From: Auxenochlorella pyrenoidosa
Lineage: Eukaryota > Chlorophyta > Trebouxiophyceae > Chlorellales > Chlorellaceae
Assembly: GCA_001430745.1 (NCBI GenBank)
Contig: KQ482057.1
Span: 242,052 to 306,051 of the forward strand
Direction of reading: 5' to 3'
DNA: 64,000 nucleotides
Position numbers and translations under genes: made by a program. A model generated the notes under the pieces. It ran no database searches. It worked only from the letters and a program-made list of their open reading frames with translations, and was not told the DNA's origin. Shown here piece after piece: positions 47,901 through 63,500 of the stretch (its first letter is position 1; every line of letters starts with the position of its first letter).

Positions 47901-50900
47901 GCAGCTTGCGTCTGTCAACGACATGCCAGCCATGTTTTCAGGCACTGTTCTGCCTGCAGCAGTTGGCGTATACGTTCCCCTACCGTGCCCGGCATGGGGA
48001 CAAGCACCTGCTGCATCAGCGACTGGTGACAGCCGTCGCAGTGCTCAGCAGCTCCATGGTGGATCCAGGCAGATGCTGTCTGTACTTGATAGCCAACTGA
48101 AGGCGATGACGCACCCGTCTGTAGAGCTGGGCATCGAACTGAACGCCGCAGCTGGCCTTCGCGATGCTACACCTGGGCAGATGCAGCTGCATAGCTCTTT
48201 GTCGCAGCCAACGCAGCAGCATATTTTGACGGTAATCCTTGAGACAGCCAGCATGCTACTGGGAAACAGTGTGGATGCAGATCAGCCGCTCATGGAGGCA
48301 GGGCTTGACTCAATAGGTGAGGTCGATCCTGGAATCTGAGAGCAGGGCAGCTTCTGAGCAGGCGCCAACATGCCTGGCCAAACTGCATAAAACAATGTCT
48401 GCCAAGGCAGCCATTGCATTAGCACCCACTCTGCTCTGCAGGAGTTGTTGAGTTGCGCAACTCTCTTCAATCTGCTTTCGACTTGGAGCTGCCAGCTACA
48501 GCCATTTTTGACTTCCCTACTGCTGCAAGTCTGGCGCAGCATATTGCATCCCGCATGGCTGCTGCTGCGCCTGTGCTCTCCGTGTCAACAACAGAAATTA
48601 GGGCACCAAGCCTGTTGGCAAATCCGGGCACAGCAACGGAGATTGTGGGTTGGGCGGCGTCCGCTGCCACGCCCGCTGAGCCCAGCGCATGTGCGTAGGA
48701 GGGCTTGCTCAGCTGGGCTTGCAATGCTGCCTGTGAATCATGCAATGTCCTGCCTGAGGCATCAGCACACTTCACAGCTTGACAAACAACAATTTGCTCG
48801 GCCCGTGTGCAGCCTTGATGCAACATTTGTACGACGCATCGGACTGTGTTTCTCCCGTGCCGCTGGGGCGGTGGGATCTGGAGCGAGCATCACATGCGCT
48901 TGACTCTGCGCAGGTAATCTCGTGTGTTTGGTGATGGCTTACACACGTGGCGCCTCTGTATGCACTAACTGTTTCTGTGTGCACGGTTGCGACTGCCTGC
49001 AGGCAGCAGCACTTCGCTTTGCAGCTTGGATGTCTGACATTGATCTTTTCGATGAAGGCCTCTTCCGGCTTTCTCGGTCGGAGGCTGTTGGGCTTGACCC
49101 GCAATGTCGTCGGCTGTTGGAGAACGTGTGGGCGGCAATGCAGGTATATTATATTGGCCCCCAGCAGCATTGGTGTGCTCCTTTTTCAAAAAAGCAGCCC
49201 CGTCACTGCACGACGTCGCCTGCTGACTGCCTATCCTCCCAGCGCTGGATGCTGCAGGGGGCAGCTCCTGGCCTTCCAGCTGCCATGGCTGCGACTACTG
49301 GAACCTATGTTGGCTGTGTTTGGAGCGAGTACATGGTTTTGCAGGAGTCTTATGGGGTGCAGCCCAGCATTGCTGCTCTGACTGGCAGCGGCCTTACCTT
49401 CCTCGCTGGACGTGTGTCCTACACTTTTGGCCTGCAAGGTGAATGCTCGCTAAGGGGCGAGCAGTAGGTGCTCGAGGCCAGATTGGAGAAATGATGGGCA
49501 AGGTTAATGGACATATTGCCCAACTCTGGTAGTGCGCCCCCCAAATGCTGGCTTGAGCTAATCTGCTGTCTGCAGGACCATGCTTGAGCTTGGACACAGC
49601 GTGCTCTTCCTCATTGATTGCTACTCACCTTGGCCACCGCGCTCTCCTCGATGGCGAGGCCAGTGCCTCAGGTTGGAATTGTTTTATTTTGCAAGCACAT
49701 GCATTGCATGACCAGCTCCTGCCAGTCTGCGTGTAAGCAGACTAAACAGACGTTTCGTATCGGAGCTTGGTCCCCTCCCTCGCAGTAAGCGCGGGCACCA
49801 ACATAATGTTGGTGAGCAGCACAACCAATAGCCTGGCACGCCTGGGAGCGTTATCAAGCAATGGGCGCAGCAAAACATTTGATGCCACCTCTGATGGGTA
49901 TGGCAGAGGAGAGGCCTGCATAGTCTTTGTCGCATGCAGCCTTGGCAGCGGTCAAGTGCCGCTTGCAACAATGCATGGTGAGTGACACCACAACACTCGA
50001 TGGGCTGGCTTCAATTCATTGGTTTTGCATCCATTAACCCTAGCGTAACTCACTCCACGCTGTTTGTGTGAACGCTCGGACTGTTGAACAAACATTGGGT
50101 GGTTGTGAGCCCCAAAATTCGCCCATACCATCAAGCTTCTGCTCATTCCACTGCAGGGTCGGCATGCAACCAAGATGGGCGCAGCAGCGGTCTCACGGCA
50201 CCAAATGGCCCTGCACAGACCGCACTTGTGCATACTGCATTGGAGCGTGCTGGGGTCCAGCCGCACGATGTTTACCTTGTGTCCATGCATGGCACTGGCA
50301 CACCGCTTGGGGACCCTATTGAAGTGACTGCCTTGGGAAGGGCGCTTGGAACCGCCCAAATGCGCGCTGTGGCACTGTGTGAGTATGGCCAGGGTGGGCG
50401 GCGGCGCGCTGTATATTGAGCGTGTGCCGACAGAATGTGGCATGCCACAGAGCGCATTTGTTTCGGCGCCCTGAATTTTACTGTCTGGTACACCTGCTTC
50501 ATTTTGCGCAGGCTCGGTGAAGGCCTGCTTTGGCCACACTGAGGGCGCAGCGGGGGCCCATGGTGCCCTTGCAGCTGCACTTACATTGAAGCAAGGCTCC
50601 GCACCCCCAGTGATGCATTGCCGCACACTTAACCCATATGTTGCTTCCTCATTTGAAGAGTGGCAGAACGCAGCCCACAGCATCCTGCCCCTGGTGGGCA
50701 GAGGCGCCACAGCTTGGCCGAGGTCGCCTGGTGCTCTGGCAGGTTGTAGCTCGTTTGGCATGAGCGGCGTGAATGCCCATGCGCTCTTCGCAGCTCCATA
50801 TGATGACAGCTGCAGCCTGGATATTGAGATGGCATGGCAGCAGCACCGGCATTGGCCAGTGCCGGATGCCCATCACATGCTGGCATCTGCCTTCACAGAC

Positions 50901-53900
50901 ACAGGCGGAGATGCCGGCTCAAGGTGCGCACAAATGGCCTGGCTCAGGTAGAAACACATGGGTTGTGCCAGCACCATAAACTTTTCATATGATTGCACAC
51001 TTTTGCCACTTTTGCCCCATGCCCAGGTTCCAAGGCTACTTGACTTCTGCCGCCCTTGGGTTCCTGCTTGATCACGTGGTGCAAGGCAACAGCATCTTGC
51101 CTGGTGCTGGCATGCTGGAGGCCTGCACCGCCAGGTCGGTGTTCGACCTTGGCACGGCCATCCTCGCCATGCTTTGTTCTGGTTCGCTGCTGCCCGGTGT
51201 GCGGCAGCCCATCACCTGCAGATGATGCATGCATCCGGATGCCTCTGAGCATAATTGTTGCCATTGTCTTTGCCATGTGCTATGCAGCATTAACACCCTG
51301 TTAGAGCAGGCAGGACAGCCCTTCCTGGCCGAATGTTCCATTCCGGCACCCTTGGTGATGGGCCCCGGCAAGGCAGTTTTGCTGGACTGCCTCACGAGCC
51401 GTGATAATGGAAGAGTGGCGCTGCGAAGCCTCCTAGGAAGTGGGGGTGCTGCCAGGCTACACTTTGTAGCGGCGGCATGCAGCACTTTGGACAAATCTCT
51501 GGATTGCAGTGCTTCTAGCACTCTGCCATCCGGCTTGCTGTTGGCCGCAGTGCAGAGCACAACATCACTGCAGAAAATCCTTGTCGGCTCACAGCCATCG
51601 CTGCCGCTCGAACTCCCAGCGACTGCCACCACAGCTGCTACTTGTGGCGTACGCTGCACGGCGCAAATCAGCTTAGCACAGAGCAAAACAGCGGGCTGGT
51701 GGGCACACCCTGCAGTGGCTGACAATGTCCTGCATCTTGGGCCAGCTACGGCCGATGTCGGAAGCCTGGCTGGCGATGCAGGCGTGACCAGGGTCGTGGC
51801 TGGCATTGCGGCATACGCAATCTGGCGCAAGGCAAGTGACTTGAAATTGCTTGGCTAGCTTTTCAAAACGACCATGCCTCCACCCTCAACAAGCACTTTG
51901 TGAGGCTAAATGCTGCAGGTGCCTGGGGGAGGCTGTGCCTGGACTTCTGCTGACCGTTCTCCAACAGGGCCTGATGGCATCGTCCTCATGTCGCATTCCC
52001 TTTCTACCCCAGCTGCTTCTTGCTCCCTACAAGTCAGCAACCTTGTTGGCAAGCCCATTGTCCTCGCTCGGGCTTCCAGCTCCATCTCTAATGCATCTGA
52101 AGCTGCCTTGGACCGTGCTCGCTTCGTATATGAGACCGACTGGCAGGTGGTCAGCAGACATGTTGAGCCACACTCATCAATCTTGGGGAGGGCTCCTTTG
52201 ACAGCACGACAACCCACCCTTGTTTTGAGACAGCAAGATGCCACGACATTGGAGTTTAGCCTAGCTTCTGCGTTCCTACTTGGGCATGCAACATCCCACG
52301 CTTTCTATGCAATGTCGACGTGCTCTGCCCATATTGCATGGACTCAAGAATTGGCGGCCAAGGCTGGCAGAGAAGCTGCTGCGGAACTGCTGACCTTTGC
52401 AACAGAACAAGTGCTTGGCAACGCAGCAGGAGTGGCCGGCAACCCAGCCTCCGTTGCAGGAGTGCTAGGCATGCAAAGCATGCAACGTGTTGCAGCAATG
52501 GAGCTAGGAATGGTCCGATTTGCTAGCGCAGATGTGGGGTTGGCCCATACACAGCCATTGGAAAGGTGAGCCTTTAGACAACAGCTGTGGCAGCTGACCA
52601 TGTGTGTGTGTGGTTACTCTGCTTGCGTGTTATGCCCCTTGCCCTCCAGTGCAATTCTTGGCAGTGCTATATCCCTGTCTATGTGCATTCAGGTATTCGA
52701 GTCACACGCTGCTGGATCTGTACAGAAATGAGACGCACGGCCTCGACATGTATGGGCGCCGTTTGCAAGCTAGTGCATGGGCTGCTCCAAGGCTAATGGT
52801 GCGCGAGCCATCCTTGACGCCAAAGGTAATTTTTGCTATATTCTCATGCTGTTGCACACACTTGTTGGCCAGATTACTCGGGCACTTCGAGCTGTTCCAT
52901 CTGGTGCTTCCATTTCTGGAGCGCTGACTGTTGTATTACTGCCCCCATGTTTCGATTCGTAACTGCCCTGCCCAACCGCCCTCGTGCCTTTGACGACTCG
53001 ACTGCATGCTTGTCCGCCGGCCTATGGCCCGCACATCTGCTGCTTCACCTGTTGCATGTGTTGGTGCACAAACAAATTGCTTGCAGGCTGGCCAGTGGAG
53101 TCCCACAGAACCCTCAACTTACCTGGGGGGCTTGATGATTGTCACTGGCGGCCTTGGCGCACTTGGAGCTCTTGTAGCAGCGTGGCTGAGCTGGCTTGGA
53201 GCCTGTGACCTCCTTCTTCTGGGCCGCTCAGGACGCACAAGTGAGGACTGCATTGGACGCACCGACTGAGCGCGTTGCTCGGTTGTTTTGTGTCGGGTAG
53301 TTGGCTGATGCATGAACACCTGCATGTGGTGTTGGCTTTTGTCACCCCAAGAGCTCCCTTCCCTGCCTGCAGGCAGTGATCCCTTGGCTCCCCAGCTTCA
53401 GAAGAATATGTCTCAAGTCCATTGCGCCAAAGGGGACGTGTCATGTGCCGAGGAGACAGCATGTATACTGGCAGGAACCAGCACATCCACCGACAGGCCA
53501 CTGCATGGCATCATGCACGCGGGTGCAGTATTGGACAGCAAGGTCATCACCAACATACGAGTTAATAGCATCCGCACCGAATTTTCAGGCTAGCACCAGA
53601 ATTTCCGTCGCCTGAAGAGCAGAACAACTAGCCAGGAAGGCGGCGTCTCGCTGCGAATTTGGGTCACCTGCAAGCAGTTTCACTTGCTGACGGCCCAACC
53701 CAGTCCCTCTTCTTTTGCAGGCAAAGTTTATGGGGCTGAGCATCTGCTGTATGGTTCCACGGCAAAGCCGCTCTCCATTCTGCAGCTGTTCTCCTCCTTG
53801 GCTGCTTTCAGCGGGGCAGCAGGCCAAGCAAGCTATGCTGCAGCTAATGGCACGCTCGATGCCTGGGCGCATACTGCCCAGGTGCAATCATCTTACTGCT

Positions 53901-54510
53901 GTTGAAACAACAACTCCACATGCCTGCCTCGCCTGATTACTGTCTGTGCCGAATTTCATGGTTGCTGCAGCCTGTCTCATGCACTGTCTGTCGCCATTCC
54001 AATGTCTGCTGCTCAATGCAGGGACAGGGGCGGCTTGGGCTTTCTGTGCAATGGGGGAATTGGGGCGGTGGCGGCATGGCAGTGCGGAACGATGGCTTCA
54101 TCCAGCGCATGGAGCGCATGGGCTTGGGCATAGGTGGGTTTGGTGAAGGTTGAGCCACTAAAATGGCAAGCAAAACCCCCTGACGTGGAATCCAGCCTTA
54201 GGCAACCGCCAACTGAGCATGGAGCTGGTGCCCGCTTTGTATGCAGTGGAACCGTACGTTGGCCTGAGCATCATGGCCCGTCTACTGCATCAAGTTGCAA
54301 AGGCAAACAACGTGTGGAGCTGGCAGCAGTCACAGTTTGTTGCAAACATCTTCTTATGGGATAGCATCCTGAAGCAAATGCCATCCGTCCCCTCGTTCCT
54401 TGGAGAATTCAAGCGGGACAGGTGGGGTGGAGCACCTCACATGTGCCATCACTGGAATTGTAATTGTACGTGCCAATAAGTTCGCACACACGCGCGCGCG
54501 CACGCACGCG

Positions 54511-54589
<79 letters not shown>

Positions 54590-57500
54590 TCACTCTGTGT
54601 TTCCTATCCTCCCCTGAACTCTGCCCAGACCCCTCCCAGCCAACCTTCAGCAAGTCAAGGGCGTTCCACAGTCGTTCAAGCCCTCTGGAACGCTGAAGTC
54701 CAGCATGCGCACACGCCCAGCTGGACTTTCAGGGCGACCCCGTGGCAGAGCAGCAGTCCACCTCTCAGAAACAGATGGAGGTACTCGTGCTCAAGACGTG
54801 CTGCCCGTGGTCCTTGGAATTCTGGATGGGCTTGGGATTCAGGCTTTACCAGAGCAGCCGCTGGCTGAAGCTGGCTTAGACTCTCTGGGTAAGCAGGGCA
54901 ATCGCATGCAGCGCATTTTCGAGTTACACTCTTTGCTAGTTGCCAAGTCTTAGCGGGGTTTTGATTTTGCACACTCCTTTGCAGGTTCTGTCCAACTGCG
55001 TAACGAGTTGTCTGCTGTGTTTGGCATTGAGCTACCAGTGACAGTAACCTTTGACCAACCGTCAGCGAGCGCTCTGGCTAGCTATCTTGCTGGGCGGGGT
55101 GCTGCAAAGGAGAGTGGGGCAAAACAAGATGCTTTCATTGCCCAGTCAGGTGTCCCCGAAGGCTTGCATGCTTCTGCATCAGCGGCATCCGTGCCGAGCC
55201 CGGTTGCTGAGGTTGGTGCCATCGTGGCATCCATAGTGGGCAGCGAGGTTGGCTTTGATGAGCCACTGATGGCTGCAGGGCTCGACTCCCTTGGTGAGAA
55301 ATTCGTGCAAATGACCCAGTTCCTCCCCCCATCCCCCGGTGATCCCTCCCAACCTTGCATTTCGTGCTCTTATGCACCCGGGAAGCCTCTACTAAGCTCC
55401 TCTTTTAAGGCCTGCAGGCGCCATCCAGCTTCGCAATGCCATTGGCCAGCGTTTTGGCATCGACCTGCCACCAACTGCGGCTCTGGATTTTCCCACCGTG
55501 TCATCTCTAGCAAGCTTTGTTGCTCAAAAGACACTTGGCAGTGGCTCTGGGGCGGCGGCGACGGTTGTGCTCAACTCCGTCGGAAGGATAGAAGATGTTT
55601 CAGGTGAGGGTAGGCCACAGCAGGCACCGCATGGCCTGCCACTGCATTCTGACCTTGAGGAGCCGCAAACAACATCCCATTGTCCACCATATTTGTCATA
55701 TCTGAAGATGCAGGTGAGTTGTCGTCTCAGATCGTTGGCCTGGGCTGCACCTATCCGGGTGCTGCCCAAATCAGCGGCGTAGCAGGCTTTGTCCAGTCTG
55801 CGATCAATGCGGCAGATCTACCGACTGCCATTCCATGCGGGCGCTGGGATATTGAGCAGCACTACTCGCCTGGCATAGAAGGTGGGAAGGCACATTCGTA
55901 CGTGTGGAACTAAAGGGTTGACCTGCCTCCATCAAACATCTCCACCATTAAGCAAAACGTGCCAGGAGTTTTAGAATTGCAAAAGTCCTGTCCACTGCAG
56001 TTGGCAAGATGTATGTGCGCTTCGCAGCAACTCTCCATGATGTAGAGTCCTTTGATGCAAGCTTATTCCGGTGTGTTCAGTGGGTTGGTATATTTGCACG
56101 ATCAGCATGGTTCCTGTTTGCAGCCATTTATGCCTGCATCACTGTGCTTGCACTCTGCCAGGCCAATTGTACTGTGATGATTTGGTTGTGGCAAGCTTTT
56201 GACGTGGCTTCACAAAGTAAATCATTCCTTGCACAGCCTGGGCCGCGCCGAGGCGTCTACACTGGACCCACAAGCCCGGGCATTGCTAGAGCAAACGTAT
56301 GTGTCACTTGCCGATGCCAGCACCAATACCCAGGAACCAACAGCACGCGAGACAGGAGTGTGAGTGCTACTGCTGTCTGCCCTCGTATGATCTTCCTCTG
56401 ACAGGCTCGCCATTCACCGCCTGAGGGCTGGTTTTGAAGGCCTGGCACTGCTGCATGTGAATGCGTGCCACTATTAAGCTCCATGCCTGGCTTAACAGAC
56501 ACATGGTTGACTGCTCCCTCGCTTTGATCCGCGCAAACTTCTTGTGTCAGTGTCCGAATCCTCACAATTGAACACATCGTTTGCTTCCTCCTGCAGCTAC
56601 GTGGGGGTTATGCACATGGAATTTGTGCAGTATTGCGTCGACCTAGGCGTGCCCGTTGGGCCGAACCTGACAACCGGCAATGGTATGGACTTCTTGATTG
56701 GCAGGGTGTCGTACAGCTTTGGCCTGACTGGTCCTTGTGCAAGGTATGACTGCACAGTGGTTAGCGGGGTCTGTGCAACTTGGGGAAGCGTTTTATTGAT
56801 GCATGTGCACTCTTGCGCTTGATGCGATGCCTGAAGCACTTGGAACTCTTGCGCTTGATGCGATGCCTGAAGCACTTGGAACTTATGCGCACTCCCTGCA
56901 GCACGCACACGGCCTGCTCGTCCTCTCTGGTAGCCACCCATTTGGCCCAATCGGGCCTGTTGAGTGGCGAGGCCAGAGCAGCCGTCGCCTGTGGGGTTTT
57001 CATGATACTTTTGCCTGGCACTATGAGTGCCATCAGCCAGCTGCAGGTGATTGATGTGGAGGTCGGTAGGTGATTTGACAGTGCAACATCACGGGCCCCT
57101 GGTGGTCGCCTGCTCTGCTCTGATCATTTCAGGCAAAGGAATGCACCCCTGCAGGCATTGTCACCCGTGGGTCGCTGTAAGACGTTTGATGAATCGGGCG
57201 ATGGCTACGGCCGCGGGGACGGCTGCGTTGTTGCAACAATGGTGCCTGGGACCACAGCAAGCGATGCCTATGCTTTGGTGCATAGCACGGTCGTCAACCA
57301 GGATGGGCGCAGCAGTAGTTTGACAGCCCCCAACGGCTCCAGCCAGACCTCCTTGGTGGCTGCGGCACTTGCTAATGCAGGTGCGCTGGGCAGACTCAGC
57401 AGCCCCTGCCCCTGCAGTGCTGGATCAACGCTCACTGTCAGCAGATCAGCGATGCGCGCACTCAGCCAAAGCCATGGATCTATGCTTGTTGTGCAGGGGC

Positions 57501-60500
57501 GTCCGCTGTGGCTATCAGTTACATGGCTGTCCATGGCACTGGAACGCCGCTTGGCGACCCGATTGAGATGGGGGCACTTGGACAGGCGCTAGCATGCCAA
57601 GGGGCTGAGAAAATGCACTGCATCGCCCTTGGCTCTGTCAAGTCTTGCTATGGCCATACTGAAGGAGCGGCGGGGCTGACAGGAGCGCTGCTTGCGTTGC
57701 AGGCGACTCGCTCTCAGGTGTGCCTACCACGTTTGACCCTTGTGCATGTTCTGTCTTTGTTGCGCCATGGTGCATATGAACATGCACACTTCCTGTCTTT
57801 TTCTGTCCCATGGCTGCTTTCTCTCACAAATGCTCTCGTCTGAACTTAAAATTTTTGCTTCGCACACTCCCGCGTGGCAGGTCTGCACCCCCATCCTAAA
57901 TCTGCGAAGCATGAATTCATACGTGGAGTCGACGTTTGCCGACTGGCACAAGGAACACCGCCTGGACCCCAGTGCCGCCCGCCAGGTTGCATCACTGCCA
58001 TGGCCACACCCCATCCACTTGTCAGGGACCAGCTCATTTGGCATGAGTGGGGTGAATGCTCACATGCTGCTGGAGGCAGTGCATGAGGTCTGTGAGGGCG
58101 CTGGTGGCGAAATTGGTGCCCTCCAGCGACGCCGGCATTGGGTTCTGGCGCCGGTGCATCATCTTGTTGGCCACGCAGTGCCGAGTGCACTGCACCAAAA
58201 GACCTGGTGTAGCCTGGCCATTGACCTCTCAAGGGCAGGCCTCAGCTACCTGCACGACCATCAGGTGGGTGGGTCGATGAGTTCGGCTCTGGGCCTTTTC
58301 TGCTGCAGGTTCAGTGCATGCGCAGAACAAATTTGATTCGCTTGCATCAATCGCTACATTAGTAGTGTCACATTTGTTCTATGGTTTTCAGGTCATGGGC
58401 AGGGTGCTGCTGCCTGCCACGGCCATGCTGGAGGCTTGCACGGCTGCTGCAAACACTTTGGCTGGCGCACCTGGTCAGAGTGGCATCGTCCTGCAGGGCT
58501 TTGGCATTACTGGCCCACTGATCATGCCCGCAACTGCGCCTATGTATGTTGAGATTGAGGTCAACCCACAAGGCAGCATGCAGCTGTTTAGCGTCCAGCA
58601 CTCAATGACGAGCAAAAGGCAGCTCCACTGCAGCGGAGGTGTGCGCTCACGGCTGCAGCGCCAGGTTTTAGCAGCTGAGCAGGTGGCACTGCCCATTGCT
58701 TCTGGTTCCCTGCGTCCCTCAACCAGGGCAGGCGCATGGACTGCGCGCTCGGTTCAAAGCCAGATGGCATTTGCCAGCATCTGGATGTCTGCAGTATCGC
58801 AGCACGGATACTGCTTGCACCCAGCAAAGGCGGATGCTGTGCTCCATCTGGCGGGTGCATTTGCTACAACAGCAGGCCCACTTCTTGTGCCCGTGGCCCT
58901 GTCTGCTCTCACCTGCCACAACACTGGCGTGTCTTACGACCGCTGGGTGCATCCTGCTGCTTTTTCAGATCTGGCAGGTGCAGCGGGCAGCGAGAAGGCT
59001 TCGCTGAGCTACCAATTGCAGGGTGACCTGCTGCCAGCGCTTGAGGTTGCTGGCGTGACCCTGAAGTCGGTGCAGTCTCAACCCGCAGCTCAAGCATCCG
59101 TCGACTCTGCTGAGCAACCATTCAACTCAGATATCAAGTACTGCATTGAGTGGCAGGTTTCTCGTGAACAGCCAATGTCTTCAGAAGCTGCGCCTGGTAG
59201 ACTGTCGGCGTGGGCTGCTTCTGTCTCCACTTCCCTGATTCTCCAGTACAATGCTGCAAGTGCAATTATGCCAGCAGCTGTCACAGCTGCTGCAACCACT
59301 GGTCTGGAGCTGCTTCAGCACAGCATGGCAGCGGGCGGCAACAGTACTTGCAGCCTGCAAGTGGCAGGAGCTCCAAGCAGCCTGCCAAGTGCAGGAGGTG
59401 GCAGCGCTTCTGTTTTGGCATCTTCCTCCGCTGCATCACTGGCAGCCCTTTGCAAGGTTGCTGCCATGGAGTCTGCAGACGTCACAGTACAAAGCAGCCA
59501 GCTGGAGAGTGCTACCATTCTGCCTGGAGAGTGGCCAACAGCTAGATTTTGTGGCAATGATGCATTTGGTACTGCAGGCAGCCATGGTGCCGTGTTGCGG
59601 GCCAGGCTGCTTCGGAGCTCAGACGTGATGCTGGCTGCCAACAGCCACCTCTTGCCATGTCCAAGAGGCAGCTTGCAATCACTCCGTCTCGTGCCGCACG
59701 CCAAGTCGACAGGTCTTCTTGAGACTGGACAAGTCAAGGCAAGCAAGGTGGAGCATTCGTGGTGCTCAGAATTGCCCTTCTTATGTGTTGCACGCTACTC
59801 TTGCGATGAGGTGTGCCCCACCCACAGAGAAGCCCTTTCCTTGTCCTGCAGATTACCATTCGGGCAGTCGGACTCAATTTTCGTGATGTGCTGAATGTTC
59901 TTGGCCTGTACCCTGGTGACCCAGGTCCTCCCGGTGGTGATTGTGCCGGAGTGATAGCCGCCGTAGGGCCTGGAGTGGAAGGGCTTGCCCCTGGTAGGTT
60001 CTTGCCCAAGTCCACCTGTCCTCACCCATGGGCTTTGTAACGGGCATGCATTTAGTGCCTTGAAGCTGAATTTAGTCCCCTAATCTACTCACTGCAGGCG
60101 ATGCTGTCTTCGGGCTCGCTCCAGGGTGCCTTGGACTGTCGGCGCTAGCGGCAGCTAAGCTTCTAGCCCCCATGCCCTCTAACCTCAGCTTTGAGGCTGC
60201 GGCAACCACCCCCACTGCTTACATCACTGCAATACTAGCTCTTCAACAAGGCAATGGCGCTCGGCCAGGAAGCAAGGTGTGAGGGCTGAACCCGAGGGCC
60301 ACAGTGGGAGATTTGTAGTAATGAGCCTGTCATTCAGTGGGTCAACACTGCCTCTGCCTCCTGGATTGCAGGTGCTAATGCCTGCGGGCTCTGGTGGCGT
60401 TGGCTTGGCCGCAACGCAGATTGCCCTGTCAATGGGCTGCAGCGTGCTGGCCACTGCTGGGTCTTCGCTGAAGCGCACTGCCGTACGCGGCCTTGGAGCT

Positions 60501-63500
60501 CCAATCGTCGGGGACTCGCGGACGGTGGGATGCACCAACTTGGTGGCATCGGCTACGAGGGGTGTAGGAGTGGACGTCCTGCTGAACTCGTTGACATCTC
60601 CAGGTCTGTGATAGCTGATGTAACGGATTGTTTAGCAGTCACTTGAAAGCTGGCTTTTGCATGGACCTTGCCTCCCATGCTTCTTGAGTGGAAGCGCATT
60701 TATGCCTGCAAGCTACAGCATCGCGTGTTGATGCACCTTTTACTCCCGGCAGGAGCCTCACTTAATTCTCTTCCTGCAGGCATGGTGGCTGCTGCCCTAG
60801 CATGCCTGCTTCCGGGAGGAAACTTTGTGGAGATTGGCAAGCGTGACATCTGGTCTGCTGCCCGAGTAGCACAAGGTAGCCAAGCTGTTCATCATTTGTT
60901 CCTGCTTCTGTGGAGACCAGAGTTTGCTCCGTGAGGATAGAGGGGCAGGTATGACAGCCCAGCCCTTTTTTTCTCCACGTGCAGAGCGCCCAGACGTTGT
61001 GCATCGCGTGCTTGCAATTGACTTCTTACCAGCCGGCAAATTGCAATCAAGCCTGGCTCAATTGGCGTGCTTGCTGGCCTCTGGGCGCGTTACGCCGCTG
61101 CACCACCATGCCTACAAGTTCAGAGATGCCATTGTCGCCTTGCGACAATTCACACACGCACAGCATATTGGCAAGATTGTCTTGCAAATTCCACCGCCTG
61201 CGAGCAATGATCAGCAAACGGAAGGCTGCTGGGCAGTTAGTGGCGGCCTGGGTGCCCTCGGCGTGCTAACAGCAGAATGGTTGGCGGGTCAGGGCCACAA
61301 GCAGCTACTGCTGCTAGGCAGGAGTGGAAGGTAAGTACACTGTAGGGGGTTGGGGACTTGTAAGGAAGGATTACATTGATTCATAAAAAGAAGATAGGAG
61401 AGCCTTTGAAAAGTCCAATGGCCCTGCTTCCCTGCAGGATGACTTCTGATCAGACTCCTTCTTGCAAGCACATCAGACAGACATGTGCCATGGTACACAT
61501 GGTACGGTGCAATACGGCTGTTCTCACCGAGGCCATAGCTGCACTTGGAACTGCCGCTGGCCATCCCTTGGCGGGACTCTGGAACAGCGGCGGCATCCTG
61601 CAAGATGCTGTCCTCAGGGCACAAACCGCTGCACACATCCGCGCCGTGTTTGCTCCCAAACTGTTGTCCGCATGGGCCATGCAGCATGCAACGTGTGGAC
61701 AGCCAGTGCAGCACCAACTGCTCTTCTCCTCGGCTGCGTCTCTCTTCGGCGCCCCTGGGCAGAGCAACTATGCTGCAGCCAATGCGGCGCTTGAGGGCTG
61801 GGTGACAGCCTCCACGGTTTCTGGGCTCAACCAGGTTGCTATCCAGTGGGGAGCATGGGCTGCAGGTGGGTGGTTCTCAGTGTTCCAGGCATTTATGATC
61901 TTTCCGCTTTTAGCATGAGGCATTTTGGGTCCTTTGTGATTGCTGAGCAGTTGGGTGTAGGTCGACATTGTACAGACCAAGACTGCATAAGCCCATCACC
62001 ATCTGCCATGCCCAATCGTGCAGGCATGGCAGCTCGGTCGGCTGTGGAACAGCGGGCCAAGCGCACCGGACTGGGCATGCTTAGCCCTGGAAGTGGCCTC
62101 GACGCCCTGCGCTCTATTTTGGATGGGTCTGTTGCATGCCCACTCAATACGTATGCCCTCACTGCAGTGGTCCCAGTAGCATGGCAGATTCTCCTGCGTG
62201 CCGCCCGTGGCAGCATACCTGATTTCTTTGCCGAAATGGTAGATGCTGCAATGGAAAGGCAGATGCTACCAACAGTACGGCTGCTGCCTGCTAGATCCCA
62301 CTCGCCAGTGCCTCCCGTGACAACACCTTTTACACCATCTACGTCTTTGACAACACGTGTGGATGAGTCCGCTGTGCTCGGTTTGGTCCTGGACACTATT
62401 CAGGGCATTCTGGGGGCAGACGTCAACGACACGCAGCCCTTGATGGAGGCCGGTCTTGACTCCCTGGGTGAGTCCTCTACAGTTCTACTTGCTTGCTGAG
62501 AAAGAGAGGGCTGGAGGAGTATTTGCACGAAGCTGGCACCTTGTGGCGTCGTTGCGATCGTTTTTTGGGTAAACTCTTGGGTGCGCCCCCCCCCCNNNNN
62601 NNNNNNNNNNNNNNNNNNNNNNNNNNNNNNNNNNNNNNNNNNNNNNNNNNNNNNNNNNNNNNNNNNNNNNNNNNNNNNNNNNNNNNNNNNNNNNNNNNNN
62701 NNNNNNNNNNNNNNNNNNNNNNNNNNNNNNNNNNNNNNNNNNNNNNNNNNNNNNNNNNNNNNNNNNNNNNNNNNNNNNNNNNNNNNNNNNNNNNNNNNNN
62801 NNNNNNNNNNNNNNNNNNNNNNNNNNNNNNNNNNNNNNNNNNNNNNNNNNNNNNNNNNNNNNNNNNNNNNNNNNNNNNNNNNNNNNNNNNNNNNNNNNNN
62901 NNNNNNNNNNNNNNNNNNNNCCGCAGGATCTGTCGAGCTGCGCAATGCTCTGGCTTTGAAGTTCGGCATGGAGCTGCCTCCCACCCTAGTTTTTGATTTT
63001 CCCAGCGCACAGAGCTTAGCCAAGCATATTGCATTTAATTTGGATGTCACCAAGCCAGTTGACGATGGGCAGGATATAGCTCGCGTGCAGCAGGCTAGAC
63101 GTGGCAGGCGCCCTGCCAGCTCTCGCCAAGAGCACAGATATTCTGCTGAGTCAAGGGAACATTATGCAGAAGTGAATCTGGAATCCCTCCTCACTGTGCT
63201 CTCTGAATTGACCCAGTCAGTTCTGGGGGATCCAGTCAGCCCCTCCCAGCCCCTGATGGAGGCTGGCCTTGATTCACTAGGTGATTCTGGCAGTAACTTG
63301 TTGACCGCAGCATGTGCTGGACTCTGCATCTGCAATGTGAAGAAGGCTGCTGGCTGAGAGAGTCAACATGTGTGCGTGCAGGCACAGTGGAGCTCTGCAA
63401 CCTTCTCAGTTCAGCCTTGGGAATCGATGTGGTGCCCACAGTCCTGGTTGACTACCCAACCCTGACGGCCCTTGCCTCTCATTTGGCGGGTGCCATGCCG

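What the first reader, a model, noticed from the sequence alone, without database searches (positions are those of the whole stretch)
48301..63385. All five ACPs carry the same phase-1 intron immediately after the phosphopantetheine Ser-Leu/Ile
Seen directly: introns start at 48317, 54889, 55294, 62468 and 63281, each splitting the Gly codon that follows DS(L/I), with the next exon always starting xxVxLxN. KS introns do not share positions in this way. Inference: the ACPs are copies of one exon-intron unit, giving a physical record of module and ACP duplication, and the exon border may help domain shuffling.
Basis: seen in the sequence. Interest (0 to 1): 0.75.

Follow-up and report, generated by a model that had tools for sequence, protein, structure and literature searches.

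The report
Ancient intron splits algal PKS carriers
In a giant green-algal polyketide synthase gene most carrier domains are cut by an intron at exactly the same point beside their active serine, related sequences mostly share it, and it looks like an old intron copied along when the carrier domain was duplicated, a useful but not extraordinary record of how such enzymes grow.

Summary
All five ACPs in the window carry a phase-1 intron in the Gly codon after DS(L/I), at the stated coordinates. The gene runs past the window: 9 ACPs were found, 7 with this intron (profile position 39.1), one with an intron just before DSL and one at 49.0. Two other PKS loci of the genome differ: C35 has 39.1 in 3 of 9 ACPs, C8 in 0 of 17. 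Of 21 readable ACP junctions in outside ORFs whose best genomic match is this gene, 20 break off exactly there (ACP1, ACP3 and ACP5 homologues). P0007 does not fit, and P0003, which reads through, may be a second exception. So the intron is older than those species. Tandem ACPs are joined by one symmetrical 1-1 exon in 3 of 3 pairs of the gene, and one homologue has an extra ACP of this kind.

Not supported: one module copied throughout (modules fall in two deep KS clades), 'KS introns share no positions' (one recurs in 9 of 22 KS), and help with domain shuffling (the cut lies inside the ACP; no sign of a breakpoint). Best reading: an ancestral ACP intron spread by ACP duplication; repeated insertion is not excluded. 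Splicing was not tested with RNA.

The parts
48202..48316 (+). ACP1 first half, ends ...MEAGLDSI + first base of Gly
48317..48441 (+). ACP1 intron, phase 1 in Gly39 (39.1), 125 b
   Evidence: single match in the genome; same junction in 15 of 15 ACP1 homologues that read on, a 16th ends there
48442..48569 (+). ACP1 second half, VVELRN...
54831..54888 (+). ACP2 first half (modelled from profile position 20; the open frame runs on upstream)
54889..54984 (+). ACP2 intron 39.1, 96 b
54985..55293 (+). single 309-b symmetrical 1-1 exon: second half of ACP2, linker, first half of ACP3; no stops
55294..55417 (+). ACP3 intron 39.1, 124 b
   Evidence: single match in the genome; same junction in P0008 and P0009
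55418..55530 (+). ACP3 second half
62353..62467 (+). ACP4 first half
62468..62926 (+). ACP4 intron 39.1; contains an assembly gap (62596-62920)
62927..63280 (+). single 354-b symmetrical 1-1 exon: second half of ACP4, linker, first half of ACP5; no stops
   Evidence: 65% identical exon with the same two ends in P0001
63281..63381 (+). ACP5 intron 39.1, 101 b
   Evidence: single match in the genome; same junction in P0001 and P0002
63382..63515 (+). ACP5 second half
48914..50511 (+). stretch with the six introns of KS2 (starting 48914, 49144, 49439, 49672, 49978, 50379), none at a position shared with KS1 or KS3
55882..57880 (+). stretch with the seven introns of KS3, none at a position shared with KS1 or KS2

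Best explanation
The shared intron is one ancestral spliceosomal intron at the first base of the Gly codon after the phosphopantetheine Ser-Leu. It was present in ACPs of this PKS gene before the algae behind the homologous ORFs separated, and later ACP copies inherited it. Tandem ACPs arose by duplicating (or, in other lineages, dropping) a unit that runs from mid-ACP to mid-ACP: one symmetrical 1-1 exon plus one intron, which keeps frame and carries the intron along. ACPs outside the rule (ACP6 and ACP9 here, 6 of 9 in C35) have lost it and carry an intron elsewhere. Shown: position, phase, conservation in homologues, the symmetrical exons, and one case of copy-number difference by such a unit. 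Inferred: single origin, direction of change, and splicing itself.
For: 39.1 in 7 of 9 ACPs of the gene and 3 of 9 of C35. Homologues: 16 ORFs (P0011-P0025, P0027) have this gene's ACP1 exon as best match among the stretches of the three PKS loci, by a wide margin. In 15 of them GLDSI-G is followed by unrelated sequence, the ACP match ending at model position 38-43 with the Gly at 38; P0013 (named Micractinium tetrahymenae, partial) ends exactly at GLDSI. The residue after DSI is Gly in 15 of 15, as G|GT or G|GC demands, and then Glu or Lys in 8 of 15, as GTGAG/GTAAG would read. P0001, P0014, P0022 and P0025 re-enter coding as ...AG-SVEL. ACP5 homologues P0001 and P0002 and ACP3 homologues P0008 and P0009 break at the same point, though P0001 and P0009 show only about five residues beyond it. 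Tandem pairs: one 1-1 exon each, 309, 354 and 270 b. P0022 has a second ACP1, whose exon is flanked by the junction on both sides. No sign of a repeat family: each of 3 introns tried matches only itself.
Against: The ACP tree does not show one origin: 39.1 needs 7 changes, and 46 of 500 shuffles do as well. Tandem partners are not sisters in that tree. 39.1 ACPs belong to modules of both KS clades, so descent needs an intron older than that split and absence or loss throughout C8 (0 of 17). P0003 reads straight through Gly39 although its closest spliced ACP is this gene's ACP5 (score 212, next 195); it may be a transcript or an intronless relative. P0007, best match this gene by 1.6 bits, breaks after DSL but goes on with Asp, which does not fit 39.1. 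P0004-P0006 read through and cannot be assigned to a locus. Shared positions within C35 tandem pairs (2 of 4) are no more than chance gives (18,126 of 100,000 shuffles).
Confidence: 0.65

Rival explanations
1. Parallel insertion: the codon pair CTN GGN at a strictly conserved motif is a favoured target, so introns entered the same G|G site in several ACPs independently.
For: Another conserved Gly codon is hit again and again: KS position 273.1, the Gly of HGTGT, recurs in 9 of 22 KS over all three loci and does not follow the KS tree (7 changes, 294 of 500 shuffles as low). The ACP tree gives no single origin. Unassigned ACP ORFs read through the site (P0003-P0006).
Against: The four exon bases before 39.1 vary (ctgg, cttg, atag, ctag, ctcg). 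Random use of G|G sites never gave 7 of 7 in 200,000 draws, though only the 7 positive ACPs were put in. C8 ACPs with the same LGAVEL residues are intronless. No repeat family of introns was found for 3 of 3 tried.
Confidence: 0.2
2. Homogenisation: ACPs within the gene exchange sequence by gene conversion or ACP swapping, so that one intron state spreads through a gene whatever the module type.
For: Intron state follows the gene more than the KS clade: 39.1 in modules of both KS clades within C56, absent from C8.
Against: ACPs are strongly diverged (median end branch 0.54 changes per column), three introns tried match nothing else in the genome, and ACP distance follows the downstream KS (full ACP r=0.62 or 0.58, p=0.0002), which swapping would erase.
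Confidence: 0.12
3. Prediction artefact: the apparent introns are read-through or misassembly.
For: No RNA evidence; one of the five introns contains an assembly gap.
Against: Same junction with GT-AG ends in seven ACPs and in 20 of 21 readable ORF junctions from other sources; unless removed, the sequence splits each of these ACPs.
Confidence: 0.02

Closest known systems
Multimodular type I PKSs of chlorophytes, mostly trans-AT (Shelest et al. 2015, PMC4661987; seen: abstract, 12 of 13 found places, section 11)
   Same: Large multimodular green-algal PKS; module duplications and an ACP duplication in Volvox module 5 are described there
   Different: What I saw says nothing of intron positions in ACPs; 'intron' occurs twice in its text
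Exchange units of bacterial trans-AT PKSs (Evolution-Guided Engineering of Trans-Acyltransferase PKSs, 2024, PMC11260071; seen: 12 of 22 found places)
   Same: KSs evolve with the modifying domains directly upstream; here ACPs likewise track the downstream KS
   Different: Their unit border lies behind the KS (LPTYPFx5W), not inside the ACP
Symmetrical 1-1 exon repeats of eukaryotic multidomain proteins (recalled)
   Same: In-frame repeat unit bounded by same-phase introns
   Different: Here the border splits the domain beside its active serine, so a unit holds the back half of one ACP and the front half of the next
Introner elements of green algae (recalled)
   Same: Would also give introns at recurring sites
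   Different: Three of three introns tried match only themselves in the genome

Membership tests
Modular type I PKS | several KS and ACP domains in one collinear gene | tested here: met
   6 KS and 9 ACPs on the + strand at about C56 286-321 kb; that they form one transcript was not tested
trans-AT PKS | no acyltransferase domain inside the modules | not tested
   no AT family was searched
Symmetrical exon repeat | copies bounded by introns of one phase, exon length a multiple of three, no stop | tested here: met
   three tandem pairs: 309, 354 and 270 b, phase 1-1, no stops
Symmetrical exon repeat | copy number changes by whole units | tested here: inconclusive
   one case, P0022, with one more ACP1 unit than the window, P0014 and P0025; direction unknown, seen in an ORF only
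Introner elements | many near-identical introns in the genome | tested here: not met
   introns of ACP1, ACP3 and ACP5 each match only themselves at E<=0.001 (the search skips very common words); ACP2 and ACP4 introns not tried
Intron shared with the type II plastid ACP | intron at the same codon in the free-standing ACP gene | tested here: not met
   the one gene found (C57) reads GADSLDTVEIMMA without a break; its introns follow TDLDK and come after EIMMA

The most novel reading that the evidence does not exclude
The mid-ACP introns make the stretch from one phosphopantetheine serine to the next the real unit of growth of this megasynthase. Recombination between these introns adds or removes ACPs, or whole KS-to-ACP stretches, in frame, leaving each ACP a hybrid of two copies. 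This would be a eukaryotic counterpart of the carrier-domain fusion points used in engineering bacterial assembly lines (recalled).
Probability: 0.15. Interest if true: 0.7.

Novelty: new member of a known kind. Interest (0 to 1): 0.42.

Why it matters
Chlorophyte PKS proteins are predicted in the MDa range (abstract of PMC4661987), and their ACPs are too short for resolved trees. A conserved intron that is copied with the domain gives an independent character for following ACP gain and loss. It may also help gene prediction: the one named homologue (P0013) is annotated as partial and stops exactly at this junction.

Tried and rejected
ACP tree as a test of single origin: unresolved. Mantel tests for a breakpoint at the intron over 19 slots: a breakpoint should tie the first half to the upstream KS and the second to the downstream KS. 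The first half follows the downstream KS (r=0.41/0.38) and not the upstream KS (0.15/0.16); the second half follows the downstream (0.50/0.49) and in part the upstream KS (0.28/0.43). Within C56+C35 alone (9 slots) nothing is clear (C-half vs downstream r=0.46, p=0.05). Shared intron with the type II ACP: rejected. Introner family: not found for 3 of 3 introns tried. Homologous DNA in viral contigs: none. A first impression that the last ACP of each locus shares an intron near position 52 was wrong: they are 49.0, 55.0 and 49.2. A match-score hint that P0022 might belong to the C35 gene was set aside, where its ACP1 exon matches C56 best (135 bits). In checking, overturned two statements of my draft: that no ACP has two introns (three have a second one near the front), and that P0003-P0006 are C8-type (tblastn favours the unsplit C8 ACPs). 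The odds of the best reading were lowered from 0.68 to 0.65 for that. Dropped before counts: the C2 hit, modelled at 24 bits without intron, not PKS-like. Literature: the searches showed me no title or abstract opening on ACP intron positions in PKS genes; listings were capped and most papers were not opened. PMC12633428: passages only.

Full report
Setting. The window is G000:C56:242052-306051 of a 51.6-Mb genome in 65 contigs. The only named homologue is from Micractinium tetrahymenae, about 62% identical (P0013). The PKS gene runs on the + strand past the window end, with 6 KS and 9 ACPs found. The same genome holds two more PKS loci, C8 and C35. Counts are of what searches found in the stretches fetched.

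Observation. I aligned an ACP profile to genomic DNA with introns allowed (D36 S37 L38 G39). The five introns of the finding are at the stated bases, phase 1 in Gly39 ('39.1'), with GT-AG ends. Beyond the window ACP7 and ACP8 have it too. ACP6 has an intron splitting a Gly just before DSL, and ACP9 a GC-AG intron at 49.0; these two were read by eye. So 7 of 9. In C35 the 9 ACPs have 39.1 (3), 33.0 (3), 44.2 (2) and 49.2 (1). In C8 12 of 17 ACPs have none, and the others 41.1 (2), 55.0 (2) and 66.1 (1). Three ACPs (C8 1157 kb and 1214 kb, C35 19.5 kb) are modelled only from profile position 11-18, and the sequence before it shows a second intron near the front of each.

Is it special to ACPs? 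In this gene yes: 21 shared positions of 36 possible over ACP pairs, 2 of 64 over KS pairs. In C35 it is 7 of 36 against 6 of 40, in C8 2 of 10 against 14 of 238. Over the three loci KS domains share 273.1, the Gly of HGTGT, in 9 of 22, and 179.0 in 4. KS introns come from the same kind of alignment and were not checked one by one; six of the 22 KS models are cut short.

Homologues. I used three exons of the window that end at these introns as protein queries. The hits behave like ORFs called without splicing (my reading; the tool does not say so), so an ORF that turns to nonsense marks an intron. Of 30 proteins, one (P0010) is the window itself. Sixteen (P0011-P0025, P0027; 13 lineages if the three pairs of 88-91% identity, count once) have this gene's ACP1 exon as best match among the three loci. 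Fifteen of them read GLDSI-G and then unrelated sequence; P0013 ends at GLDSI. P0022's second ACP, the ACP5 homologues P0001 and P0002, and the ACP3 homologues P0008 and P0009 do the same: 20 junctions. P0007 also has this gene as best match, by 1.6 bits, and does not fit (Asp after DSL), so 20 of 21. Four ORFs re-enter coding as ...AG-SVEL, fitting an acceptor GCAG|G. Five ORFs read through Gly39. P0028 is of C8 type (191 against 85 bits). P0003-P0006 cannot be placed: by spliced comparison their nearest ACPs are this gene's ACP5, C8, C35 and a tie within C8. P0003 is thus a possible exception for ACP5. P0026, P0029 and P0030 show no ACP motif. The intron in ACP1 is therefore older than the split of these lineages; for ACP3 and ACP5 the evidence is two ORFs each.

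Copying. Between the two ACPs of each tandem pair in this gene lies one exon, phase 1-1, without stops: 309, 354 and 270 b. In C35 two pairs are joined by symmetrical exons of other phases (0-0 and 2-2) and one by an asymmetrical exon; like positions in 2 of 4 C35 pairs are no more than chance gives. P0022 carries an extra ACP in module 1 compared with the window, P0014 and P0025, as one more 1-1 exon with its intron. Its two first halves are 17 of 38 identical, so the event is not recent, and gain cannot be told from loss.

What speaks against a simple story. KS domains form two deep clades (100/100) and 39.1 ACPs occur in modules of both, so the intron is not the mark of one duplicated module. 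ACP distances follow the downstream KS (r=0.62 or 0.58) more than the upstream KS (r=0.27 or 0.40). The ACP-KS pair is therefore the better evolutionary unit, and nothing shows a breakpoint at the intron. The intron is not at a domain border. The ACP tree cannot exclude repeated gains.

Verdict. The reading as copies of one intron-bearing ACP unit is likely; the readings as module record and as shuffling aid are not supported. The phenomenon, an intron copied with a repeated domain, is of a known kind; I found no report of it for PKS ACPs in the searches listed.

Noticed in passing
C56:312288-312391 and 8 other KS domains in C8 and C35: A phase-1 intron in the Gly of the KS motif HGTGT recurs in 9 of 22 KS over three PKS loci without following the KS tree; flanks are mostly acag|gca.
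   Followed up: partly
G000:C8:1188557-1189645: Three tandem, nearly identical, intronless ACPs in one open frame.
   Followed up: no
G000:C8:1222720 and 1223180: Two ACPs with GLTST in place of GLDSL: the serine stays, the aspartate is replaced.
   Followed up: no
KS introns of all three loci: 10 of 108 predicted KS introns start with GC (GCAAGN) instead of GT.
   Followed up: no
window 62596-62920; L027 about 1576-1792: Assembly gaps lie next to a C-run or G-run, one inside an ACP intron of the PKS and one in or at an intron of the plastid ACP gene.
   Followed up: no
window about 54490-54590: Long AC/GC dinucleotide run upstream of ACP2.
   Followed up: no
C56, C35, C8: ACPs resemble each other according to the KS that follows them more than the one before, as described for bacterial trans-AT PKSs.
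   Followed up: partly
P0004, P0005: These ACP ORFs begin with MQ just before the ACP (P0006 has MQ there inside), as an intron ending ATGCAG would read: perhaps an intron at the front border of the ACP in other algae. Three ACPs of the window's genome also seem to have an intron near profile position 12-18.
   Followed up: partly
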